Source: a virus
Strand: one strand, 5' to 3'
DNA: 23,894 bases
Virus record (IMG/VR): IMGVR_UViG_3300025138_000354
Coordinates: 1-23,894 of that record
Made by a program: the position numbers and the translations under genes. Every line of letters starts with the position of its first letter. Within the stretch, counting starts at the first letter, position 1. Shown piece after piece: positions 18,009-22,374 of this stretch. A model generated the notes under the pieces. The model was given only the letters and a program-made list of their open reading frames with translations, had not been told where the DNA came from and did no database searches.

Positions 18009-18563
18009 ATGATATTAAGCGCAAGAAATAATCAGTTTAAGTTTGACTTTCCTAGAAATTTTATACCTGATCCAATTATTAAAAAATATAAACCGTTTCT
18101 TAATAGAATCCCAGGTGGGTTAATTAAAGAACCTATTGATTATTGGAATTATGGAATACAATCATTAAATTTACCAGGACCATCTTTTGATCCAGTAACC
18201 CAGGTAGATTACCCAGGAAACCAGAGAGCATTTAGATCTAGCCTACCTAAGCAACAATTATTTGATAAATCACTAACTGTTACCATGCAAGCATTTGACG
18301 GGTATGTTAATTATTGGATGGCCGTAGAAATGTTTGACTATTATTATAAGTTAAGTGGTAAACACCCATATTTACCAGAAGGTGTAGGTGTACAAATGTT
18401 AGATGCAGATGGTACTGTTTTTGTTACTATACAATTAAAAGATATGTTTATTTCAAATATAGGTGCATTGGATTTAAATTTTTCTAGTAACACTATTGAA
18501 TTTCAAACTTTTGATATTGAATTTAGTTATAATGTCTTAGATGTTGTAGTTAACATAGCCTAA
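18009..18563 (+). CDS. Tail tube-fold protein (T4 gp19/gp54-like)
   Basis: The protein has 184 residues, close to the 163 of T4 gp19. Two regions match the tail-tube fold: a central strand-helix unit (residues ~93-118, Thr-Val-Thr-Met-Gln-Ala-Phe-Asp, then Asn-Tyr-Trp) and the C-terminal hairpin (residues ~150-178). The C-terminal part aligns by eye with the gp19 end: Asn-[IV]-Gly-x-Leu-x-Leu-[DN]-[FW] followed by [IE]-x-x-Phe/Gln-Thr-Phe-[DE]-[IV] strands. Tube proteins stack as hexameric rings to form the DNA channel. It could be the main tube protein, the tube initiator (gp54-like) or a baseplate-tube paralogue. The N-terminal ~40 residues are longer than in gp19, which favours an initiator or adaptor. 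No sheath gene is adjacent in the window. Confidence 0.65.
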   Translation: MILSARNNQFKFDFPRNFIPDPIIKKYKPFLNRIPGGLIKEPIDYWNYGIQSLNLPGPSFDPVTQVDYPGNQRAFRSSLPKQQLFDKSLTVTMQAFDGYVNYWMAVEMFDYYYKLSGKHPYLPEGVGVQMLDADGTVFVTIQLKDMFISNIGALDLNFSSNTIEFQTFDIEFSYNVLDVVVNIA

Positions 18564-18587: not shown

Positions 18588-18944
18588 ATGAAAACCTTTA
18601 AAGATTATCTTACTGAAAATGAAACTTCACTAATTGATATACAAAGTATATTAAATGAATCTCATGAACTAACTGAAGAACAAGATGCTGCAATAGATTT
18701 TGCAGTAGAAAGAATTCTTGAAGCTCAGAAGGAAGGTAAGAATTTAGAAGACTGCGTCGAAGAAATAATTAATGAAGGTTTACTAGGAAGTATATTTGGT
18801 GGATTAACTGGTTTTGCTTTGGGGAAAACTATAGGTAAAGCAGTAGCCAAAGTATTAGGTGTTACTAAAGGTGTTCTTTATGATTTATTAACCTCACGTC
18901 TTGTAGGTGCTGCCTTAGGTGCAGTTATCGGCAAGAGAATATAA
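18588..18944 (+). CDS. Putative capsid-targeted internal protein with glycine-zipper C-terminal half
   Basis: Residues 1-10 (MKTFKDYLTE) follow the pattern of the capsid-targeting peptide of T4 internal proteins IPI and IPIII (MKTYQEFIAE), which the gp21 prohead protease removes after Glu10. Further sites of the gp21 type, (L/I)-x-E before A/G/S, occur at Leu22-Asn-Glu|Ser25, Ile43-Leu-Glu|Ala46 and Ile61-Asn-Glu|Gly64. The N-terminal half is acidic and helical. Cleavage at 63 would free a 55-residue hydrophobic, Gly-rich piece with Gly at 67, 71, 75, 79 and 83, Ala87, Gly91 and 95, then Gly107, 111 and 115, which is a glycine zipper. Such sequences insert in or pack within membranes. Packaging in the head and membrane action on ejection are inferred. 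It sits between a tail-tube gene and a nuclease gene. Confidence 0.6.
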   Translation: MKTFKDYLTENETSLIDIQSILNESHELTEEQDAAIDFAVERILEAQKEGKNLEDCVEEIINEGLLGSIFGGLTGFALGKTIGKAVAKVLGVTKGVLYDLLTSRLVGAALGAVIGKRI

Positions 18945-21082: not shown

Positions 21083-22156
21083 ATGGCAGAAGAAGTAATA
21101 ATATCTTCTGAAATGAAAGCTCGGATCATTGATAAGGTGGTCCGAGTTCTTCATACTAATCATACCCATCCAGAAAAAAGAAGAATGCTGGAGAGTAAAG
21201 GCAGGTTAAATTTTGCTTGTCCTTACTGTGGAGATTCGCATGATAACGTTAGGAAGAAAAGAGGTAATCTATATTGGAATGATTTATACTTTCATTGTTA
21301 TAATTGCTCAGCACATGCATCATTAGATGTTTTCTTAGCTGAACATAATCAAAACTTTGAAGGTGATGATAGAATTGATGTAATTAATTATATTAAAGAA
21401 AATCGCAAACATTTTTCATTAGGTGAAAATTTAGATTTTTATCTATTTGATAAAGCAAAACAATTAGCATTAACTTTTGATGAAATAGCTTTGGGTTTTA
21501 ATGTTTATCCAATTAATACTTTAACTTACCAAGCATATCCTTATTTAAAGAGTAGGTTACTCCATCATAAAACTGAAAGATTCGGTTTTGATCCAAGGCG
21601 TAGAGAACTGTATGTTTTTAATTTAACACCTGATGGCAAAATACTAGGATTTCAAACCAGAGACTTAGGAGGTGGTGGCGGTCCTAAATATAAAACATGG
21701 AATATAGAAAGAATCTATGATAGGTTAAAAATAAAATTAGATGTAACCGAAGAAGAATTAGATAACTTAAATAAAATCTCAATGTTATTTGGCATCTTAA
21801 CTGTTGATATGGCCAGAGACTTCTCTATATTTGAAGGTCCTATTGATGCAATGTTTATGAATAATTCTATTGGATTAACTGGGGTTAAAAAACAAATAAT
21901 AGAATTTAATGAAATACCTACAGCTCGGTATTTCTTTGATAATGATTTAGAAGGCAAATCTAGAATGATTGATAAATTAAAAGGTGGGCAATCGGTATTT
22001 ATGTGGGATAAGTTTTTAAAAGAATTTAATATTCCTGCAAGAAAAGTTAAAGATTTAAATGATTTAGTGAAATGGGAATACAGTAATAGATCTGGGTGCT
22101 TAAGCGACTTAGATAAATATTTTACAACAGATTCATTAGATATTATTTTTATATAA
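21083..22156 (+). CDS. 61: DNA primase, T4 gp61-like
   Basis: The protein has 357 residues (T4 gp61: 342). A zinc ribbon at the N-terminus has Cys46-x2-Cys49 and Cys72-x2-Cys75, with an aromatic-rich loop between, which recognises template for RNA primer synthesis. The central/C-terminal TOPRIM core shows Phe-Glu-Gly-Pro-Ile-Asp-Ala (~250-256), the catalytic glutamate motif, and Phe-Asp-Asn-Asp (~288-291), the metal-binding acidic pair. A Gly-rich loop, Leu-Gly-Gly-Gly-Gly-Gly-Pro-Lys (~195-202), precedes the core. Primases of this kind make short primers at the fork with the replicative helicase. It begins 5 bases after the gp32 stop with no Shine-Dalgarno, and its stop overlaps the next start as TAATG. 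Confidence 0.88.
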   Translation: MAEEVIISSEMKARIIDKVVRVLHTNHTHPEKRRMLESKGRLNFACPYCGDSHDNVRKKRGNLYWNDLYFHCYNCSAHASLDVFLAEHNQNFEGDDRIDVINYIKENRKHFSLGENLDFYLFDKAKQLALTFDEIALGFNVYPINTLTYQAYPYLKSRLLHHKTERFGFDPRRRELYVFNLTPDGKILGFQTRDLGGGGGPKYKTWNIERIYDRLKIKLDVTEEELDNLNKISMLFGILTVDMARDFSIFEGPIDAMFMNNSIGLTGVKKQIIEFNEIPTARYFFDNDLEGKSRMIDKLKGGQSVFMWDKFLKEFNIPARKVKDLNDLVKWEYSNRSGCLSDLDKYFTTDSLDIIFI

Positions 22157-22374
22157 TGAGTTTAAAAAATTATAATAATTTTGTGAGTGAAGAAGTAAAT
22201 GATTTTTATGATGATTTAGAAACAAGTAAAAAAAGACTTAAGTTTTTTGCTACTTTTAGTAAATCAGAGTTAAATCAAGTAAAAACTAATTTTTCTATAC
22301 CAGCACCGAAAAAGAAGTTTCAGCCTAAAGTAAAGGGCTTTAAAAAGATTAATAATGATAAAGGTATATTTTAA
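22156..22374 (+). CDS. Small basic protein of unknown function with capsid-targeting-like N-terminus
   Basis: This 72-residue protein starts one base inside the primase stop (TAATG), and its own stop overlaps the UvsY-like gene in the same way, so it is probably expressed with them. Residues 4-12 (Lys-Asn-Tyr-Asn-Asn-Phe-Val-Ser-Glu) fit the K-x-[YF]-x-x-[FY]-[ILV]-x-E pattern of T4 internal-protein targeting peptides. The first half is acidic. The last third is strongly basic (Pro-Ala-Pro-Lys-Lys-Lys, then repeated Lys), suited to nucleic-acid binding. It might be a packaged DNA-associated protein or a small replication/recombination accessory. No family is recognised, and the targeting resemblance is weaker than in the 118-residue protein. 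Confidence 0.6.
   Translation: MSLKNYNNFVSEEVNDFYDDLETSKKRLKFFATFSKSELNQVKTNFSIPAPKKKFQPKVKGFKKINNDKGIF

What the first reader, a model, noticed from the sequence alone, without database searches (positions are those of the whole stretch)
18588..18944. Capsid-targeted protein that may release a glycine-zipper membrane peptide
MKTFKDYLTE reproduces the T4 internal-protein targeting pattern MKT[YF]xx[FY][IL]xE, with Glu at the same position 10. Three further (L/I)xE sites precede S, A or G. The last, after Glu63, would release a 55-residue piece with Gly/Ala in strict i+4 register from 67 to 95 and again at 107-115. A protein imported into the prohead, matured by the head protease, and carrying a membrane-active payload for ejection would be a notable addition to internal head proteins, whose known members are soluble and basic.
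Basis: partly seen in the sequence, partly recalled or inferred. Interest (0 to 1): 0.75.

Follow-up and report, generated by a model that had tools for sequence, protein, structure and literature searches.

The report
Head-targeted phage pre-protein with membrane-type tail
A small protein of a marine T4-like giant-phage lineage carries the same ten-residue address label that sends T4's internal proteins into the forming virus head, followed by conserved protease cut sites that would free a membrane-type peptide, and its relatives appear to use the same kind of label on many unrelated proteins.

Summary
The ORF (118 aa, 18588-18944 +) and its features are real. MKTFKDYLTE matches the T4 capsid-targeting sequence at all four experimentally tested positions. 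In 35 representative close homologues it is fixed except for two positions (chiefly position 9, the 'x' of LxE), beside a hypervariable linker. The last site, (I/L/V)xE|G at E63|G64, is invariant across the whole family, including LR756500, two contigs whose front half is a different sequence, and Lak megaphages. A relative with a 98%-identical homologue (181 kb) encodes an S77 (gp21-type) protease-scaffold fusion and a gp23-type capsid protein starting LINE|AE. In that genome N-terminal (L/I/V)NE|(A/S/G) sites occur only in the capsid protein, this protein and proteins with the same style of leader. The T4-style leader recurs on mutually unrelated proteins: 20 in LR756500 (0.08 expected), six on two small contigs (0.01 expected). 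In T4 the same pattern finds only IPII and IPIII. Head import and cleavage are therefore well supported in silico. Membrane action is plausible but unproven: two helices, glycine zipper, conserved amphipathic half, borderline hydropathy, no family or fold match. Ejection is inferred. A prohead-membrane tether cut on maturation is a serious rival. New variant of a known kind.

The parts
18588..18944 (+). pre-protein gene, 118 aa plus stop
   Evidence: 80 homologues of the same length in IMG/VR
18588..18617 (+). residues 1-10, MKTFKDYLTE: T4-type capsid-targeting sequence (F4, Y7 targeting positions; L8, E10 processing positions)
   Evidence: fixed in 35 representatives except position 9 and one K5N; T4 positions 4, 7, 8, 10 from PMC9026906; T4 control
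18618..18647 (+). residues 11-20: hypervariable linker
   Evidence: mean entropy 1.59 bits against 0.12 for residues 1-10
18651..18662 (+). residues 22-25, LNE|S: predicted prohead-protease site
   Evidence: L22, E24, S25 invariant in 35 representatives; E24 column invariant in the alignment with LR756500 and Lak
18714..18725 (+). residues 43-46, ILE|A: possible extra cut site, less certain
   Evidence: I/L43 and E45 kept, P1' varies A/E/D
18768..18779 (+). residues 61-64, INE|G: predicted maturation site, best supported
   Evidence: E63-G64 invariant in all 40 aligned homologues including L214/L215 (LNE|G) and Lak (VDE|G); break between two helices in the model
18588..18776 (+). residues 1-63: acidic propeptide, net charge -13
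18777..18941 (+). residues 64-118: predicted mature 55-residue glycine-zipper peptide, net charge +6, helices 65-90 and 104-117
   Evidence: conserved where the N-terminal half is replaced
18009..18563 (+). upstream neighbour, tail-tube family protein (PHROG 45)
   Evidence: same order in LR756500 and L214/L215
19695..19979 (+). nearby GroES-type co-chaperonin (T4 gp31 role inferred)

Best explanation
It is a prohead-imported pre-protein that works like the T4 internal proteins but carries a different kind of payload. (1) The N-terminal helix MKTFKDY docks the protein on the prohead core (inferred from T4). (2) The S77 prohead protease cuts after Glu in (L/I/V)xE motifs, removing the acidic residues 1-63 in one or more steps; E63|G64 is the key cut (inferred from conservation, not shown). 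(3) This frees a 55-residue glycine-zipper peptide of two helices that stays in the head. (4) On infection the peptide leaves with the DNA and inserts or oligomerises in the host membrane, helping DNA entry or host takeover (inferred, weakest step). Until cut, the acidic front half may shield the membrane-seeking helices. Estimates: head import and cleavage about 0.85; membrane-active payload given import about 0.65; ejection given those about 0.7.
For: CTS match at T4 positions 4, 7, 8 and 10. The leader is fixed while residues 11-20 are hypervariable. The pattern is specific: in T4 it finds only IPII and IPIII. LR756500's homologue starts METFIEY (F4, Y7 kept) with its first (L/I/V)xE at 22-24 (FVNE|N), like T4 IPI, whose leader is MKTFKEF with the cut motif at 19. 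E63-G64 is invariant even where the front half is replaced or very different. A protease-scaffold fusion and a gp23-type capsid protein with an N-terminal LINE|AE are present. In the 181-kb relative all 11 N-terminal (L/I/V)NE|(A/S/G) sites (4.6 expected) lie in the capsid protein, this protein and proteins with similar leaders. The leader recurs on unrelated proteins and is conserved in the gene after the capsid gene, M(A/S/P)KLKTYSEF(L/V/I)NE(G/A) or similar. In Lak phages the homologue lies about 4.5 kb from the protease gene. Payload: i+4 G/A run, conserved amphipathic half-helix, helices 65-90 and 104-117 with a break at 63/64, pLDDT 83.6.
Against: No virion proteomics for this lineage was found. 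Best 19-residue hydropathy is 1.26-1.57, borderline for a transmembrane helix. Pfam glycine-zipper models stay below cut-off and no fold matches. The Lak and L214/L215 homologues lack a recognisable T4-type leader. E63-G64 could be conserved as a helix cap; in another family an 'E-GG' next to a leader is also found in Mel-JY01 inside a fusion protein with no leader. The gene is next to a tail gene in the window lineage, not in the head cluster.
Confidence: 0.42

Rival explanations
1. Prohead-membrane tether. The C-terminal glycine-zipper part sits in the host inner membrane during assembly while the CTS end is built into the core; the prohead protease cuts at E63|G64 and so releases the maturing head from the membrane. 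The peptide is left behind, not packaged.
For: Same conserved cut site between a core-binding acidic half and a membrane-type half. T4 proheads detach from the membrane at proteolytic maturation (PMC9026906) and SPN3US protease mutants stall on the inner membrane (PMC10052503). How procapsids attach to the membrane is stated to be unknown for SPP1 (PMC13212656).
Against: Import topology is awkward: T4 CTS cargo lies inside the core. Hydropathy is borderline for a permanent anchor. T4 gp40, the known membrane-associated initiator, shows no resemblance by eye.
Confidence: 0.18
2. Prohead core or scaffold component (gp67/gp68/gp22-like). It is imported and cut at several sites as part of core disassembly; the 55-mer is a core packing fragment with no membrane role.
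For: Several (L/I)xE sites and an acidic front half, as in T4 gp22, gp67 and gp68. Proximity to the protease gene in Lak.
Against: The strongest conservation beyond the leader lies in the hydrophobic 55-mer, not in the acidic part, and the gene is outside the head cluster in the window lineage.
Confidence: 0.2
3. Basic internal DNA-binding peptide, like T4 IPII and IPIII: the cut frees a basic peptide that packs with the genome.
For: Charge changes from -13 (propeptide) to +6 (55-mer).
Against: Net charge falls to +1 in the Lak homologue while the helix pattern persists; the peptide is very hydrophobic.
Confidence: 0.08
4. Not a head protein: a tail-associated or membrane protein of other function (tail tube neighbour, pilot peptide, lysis factor) whose N-terminus resembles a CTS by chance.
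For: The adjacent gene is a tail-tube family protein in the window, and the gene in the same place in LR756500 and L214/L215 looks homologous. A look-alike N-terminus (MSLKNYNNFVSEE) occurs at 22156-22374 between the primase and UvsY-like genes, so false positives exist.
Against: Selective conservation of exactly the CTS and site positions and the genome-wide context.
Confidence: 0.07

Closest known systems
T4 internal proteins IPI, IPII, IPIII (and Alt) with the capsid-targeting sequence
   Same: Ten-residue N-terminal leader with aromatic/hydrophobic residues at 4 and 7, hydrophobic 8, Glu 10; propeptide cut after Glu; small protein; basic mature part
   Different: Mature part is a hydrophobic glycine-zipper peptide; no homologue was found in the T4 record; longer acidic propeptide with several sites; no tested virion
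T4 prohead core proteins gp67, gp68, gp22
   Same: Acidic region with several (L/I)xE sites
   Different: Conservation here is concentrated in the leader and the last 55 residues; gene not in the head cluster, though near the protease in Lak
SPN3US/phiKZ-type ejection proteins with cleaved propeptides
   Same: Propeptide removal after Glu by a prohead protease, in giant phages (PMC10052503)
   Different: No homology found; T4-type short leader instead of the mostly long propeptides
Pfam glycine-zipper domains PF13488, PF05433, PF13441
   Same: GxxxG repeats in helices
   Different: Scores below curated cut-offs

Membership tests
T4-type CTS-bearing internal head protein | N-terminal leader with hydrophobic/aromatic residues at 4 and 7 (targeting) and hydrophobic 8 plus Glu 10 (processing) | tested here: met
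   F4, Y7, L8, E10 fixed in 35 representatives; positions from PMC9026906
T4-type CTS-bearing internal head protein | Leader shared with unrelated proteins of the same virus | tested here: met
   Three strict matches in G001 (about 0.12 expected over both registers), 20 in LR756500, 6 on L214+L215; mature parts of 17 LR756500 proteins mutually unrelated
T4-type CTS-bearing internal head protein | gp21-type (S77) protease and gp23-type capsid in the same genome | tested here: met
   Found in the relative with a 98%-identical homologue; the window itself is a 23.9-kb fragment without head genes
T4-type CTS-bearing internal head protein | Protein present and processed in virions, ejected on infection | not testable with these tools
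   uncultured virus
S77 prohead protease substrate | (L/I/V)xE|(A/S/G) site conserved in homologues | tested here: met
   E63-G64 in all 40 homologues; E24-S25 in 35 of 35 representatives
S77 prohead protease substrate | Cleavage observed | not testable with these tools
   needs mass spectrometry
Pfam glycine-zipper families | Score above curated cut-off | tested here: not met
   17 bits against 25 for PF13488
Membrane-inserting ejection protein | Transmembrane-grade hydropathy | tested here: inconclusive
   Best 19-residue mean 1.26-1.57
Membrane-inserting ejection protein | Fold shared with a solved or predicted viral protein | tested here: not met
   No match with E <= 0.001

The most novel reading that the evidence does not exclude
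T4-like giant phages from the sea to animal guts use a short N-terminal head-import label plus a cleavage site as a general cargo code. Tens of unrelated proteins (LRR proteins, a ligase-like enzyme, a phosphatase, SnoaL-like and metallopeptidase-like proteins) would be loaded into the head, and one near-constant item is a glycine-zipper peptide that is freed by the head protease and opens or anchors to the host membrane.
Probability: 0.3. Interest if true: 0.82.

Novelty: new variant of a known kind. Interest (0 to 1): 0.62.

Why it matters
If true, the contents of giant-phage heads can be read from genome sequence: every gene with this leader is candidate cargo. That would make the question of what T4-like giant phages carry in the head testable in uncultured viruses. 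A protease-released membrane peptide would be a kind of head cargo not described for T4, as far as I know, and would bear either on DNA entry or on how proheads hold on to the membrane and let go of it. In the open-access papers searched I found no description of this protein family or of such a leader set outside T4-type and phiKZ-type phages; that is a limited search.

Tried and rejected
Ordinary chance: rejected. Sequence families (Pfam, PHROGs, NCBIfam): only weak hits to unnamed PHROGs and sub-threshold hits to glycine-zipper, MscL, microcin E492 and xenorhabdolysin models, not used as evidence. Fold search in PDB and viral models gave no significant match. A simple regex over all N-termini gave weak enrichment in G001 and none in Lak-C1, so the claim rests on stricter, register-specific patterns and on site conservation. 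For Lak only an L(F/L/M)E(S/G)-like N-terminal tendency was seen by eye and no strict match was significant. The 'E-GG' site of the ligase-like family was considered as a further conserved cut but weakened, because Mel-JY01 has it inside a fusion without a leader. Further homologue scans with the alignment returned the same 80 contigs.

Full report
What is there. The ORF at 18588-18944 is open and encodes the 118 residues quoted. The window is a 23.9-kb virus record with T4-type genes around the ORF: a tail-tube family protein upstream, then a RuvC-like resolvase, a GroES-type co-chaperonin, gp32-like ssDNA-binding protein, primase and a UvsY-like protein. Homologues are abundant in metagenomic viral contigs; the 80 fetched are all 118 aa with the same start. 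A relative with a 98%-identical homologue (record G001, 181,663 bases) supplies the genome context. More distant homologues occur in LR756500 (462 kb, 52% identity) and in Lak megaphages (about 540 kb, 36-44%). The lineage may be the 'moraphages' of PMC12619734, aquatic T4-group phages of predicted Bacteroidota hosts near Lak; that placement is inference and was not tested.

The leader. PMC9026906 reports that in T4 IPIII the first 10 residues suffice for import, that positions 4 and 7 matter for targeting and 8 and 10 for processing. Here those are F4, Y7, L8 and E10. In 35 representatives below 93% nucleotide identity, residues 1-10 are fixed except position 9 (T, I, Q, M or K) and one K5N, while synonymous codons vary; residues 11-20 are hypervariable (mean entropy 1.59 against 0.12 bits). 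Variation at exactly the 'x' of LxE is what a targeting-plus-cleavage signal predicts. This set was collected with a start pattern MKTF, but one search shows that all 80 fetched loci have it. In LR756500 the start is METFIEY and the first (L/I/V)xE lies at 22-24, the same separation of targeting and cutting seen in T4 IPI, MKTFKEF...ITE|A. As a control, the strict N-terminal pattern finds only IPII and IPIII among 245 T4 ORFs.

The cut sites. E63-G64 is invariant in all 40 aligned homologues, with I, L or V two residues before the Glu. Two contigs (L214, L215) carry the last ~60 residues behind a quite different ~160-residue front half, and the homologous part begins around LNE|G. Lak has VDE|G. 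E24-S25 (LNE|S) is invariant in the close set; E45 is kept but its P1' residue varies.

The protease and its sites. G001 encodes an S77 protease fused to a scaffold-like region (PHROG 207) beside a portal-like gene and a gp23-type capsid protein (PHROG 138); LR756500, Lak-C1 and Lak-B1 also have the protease. The capsid proteins of G001 and LR756500 begin with ...LINE|AE. In G001, sites of the form (L/I/V)NE|(A/S/G) within the first 30 residues number 11 against 4.6 expected; all are in the capsid protein, the gene after it, this protein, or proteins with leaders of the same style, and proteins with several sites include the protease-scaffold itself.

A wider cargo code. In LR756500 twenty proteins start with a version of the motif that is three residues longer (MKYIKEYEEFLLEA and the like), 0.08 expected; on L214 and L215 six of 28 ORFs match the T4 register, 0.01 expected, mostly in tandem just downstream of the homologue. 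Of 27 such LR756500 proteins, ten are related to each other (leucine-rich repeats in the two tested) and seventeen have mutually unrelated mature parts. The gene after the capsid gene begins M(A/S/P)KLKTYSEF(L/V/I)NE(G/A) or MK(R/T)(L/V)KSYN(E/Q)FI(T/A)E in most of its homologues, almost the T4 IPIII leader. A KxDG (ligase-like, assigned by eye) protein carries swapped leaders of the same style. Virion location of any of these is untested.

The payload. Residues 1-63 carry -13, residues 64-118 +6. AlphaFold2 gives helices 65-90 and 104-117, with a break at 63/64 (mean pLDDT 83.6, pTM 0.76; the other four models score lower). Gly/Ala recur at i+4 from 67 to 95; the rear half of the first helix is strongly amphipathic in all lineages (moment 0.61-0.74), but hydropathy is only borderline for a membrane span, and in Lak the charge falls to +1. 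No family or fold match supports a function.

Judgement. Import into the prohead and cleavage are well supported by conservation and context, though not shown. Membrane activity is a fair inference from composition. Ejection is the least secure step; a membrane tether released by cleavage explains the same anatomy, and procapsid-membrane attachment is described as unexplained for SPP1 (PMC13212656). I file the protein as a new variant of the T4 internal-protein kind, not as a proven member, because virion presence could not be tested.

Noticed in passing
window 22156-22374: 72-aa ORF with CTS-like N-terminus MSLKNYNNFVSEE between the primase and UvsY-like genes; the LR756500 counterpart shares a C-terminus of the same style (KKINNDKGIF / KKINNKKGLF) but not the N-terminus, so probably a look-alike (a gp33-like role is a guess).
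   Followed up: partly
L082:20380-21228 (LR756500), next to the homologue: 283-aa protein with a very acidic front part, then LEE|G and a basic glycine-rich stretch: similar architecture to the target, no family match.
   Followed up: partly
LR756500 11706-15898, 124308, 180972, 197835-199531, 313382, 331856: Ten related proteins with the MKYIK-type leader, most ending in a shared motif like NADDFGFFDN; the two tested match leucine-rich-repeat models.
   Followed up: partly
L103:17985-19253 (G001:175985-177256) and relatives L254-L333: KxDG ligase-like protein starting EGGAAGHMxHPFD after leaders that differ between lineages but are mostly CTS-like; in Mel-JY01 the same domain is fused to a cytidylyltransferase-like part.
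   Followed up: partly
L090 / G001:18182-19903: Prohead protease (S77) fused to a long repetitive scaffold-like region in one ORF, in contrast to separate gp21 and gp22 in T4.
   Followed up: partly
L214:5665-6312, L215:5536-6192: Homologues with a different front half, MKSIKENATVANVNGMGEVSLP... (and the MRKLKET... version), whose origin and role are unknown.
   Followed up: no
L082:24977-26695 (LR756500): ThyX-like protein (by eye) that seems interrupted by an intein-like insert with a homing-endonuclease-like part.
   Followed up: no
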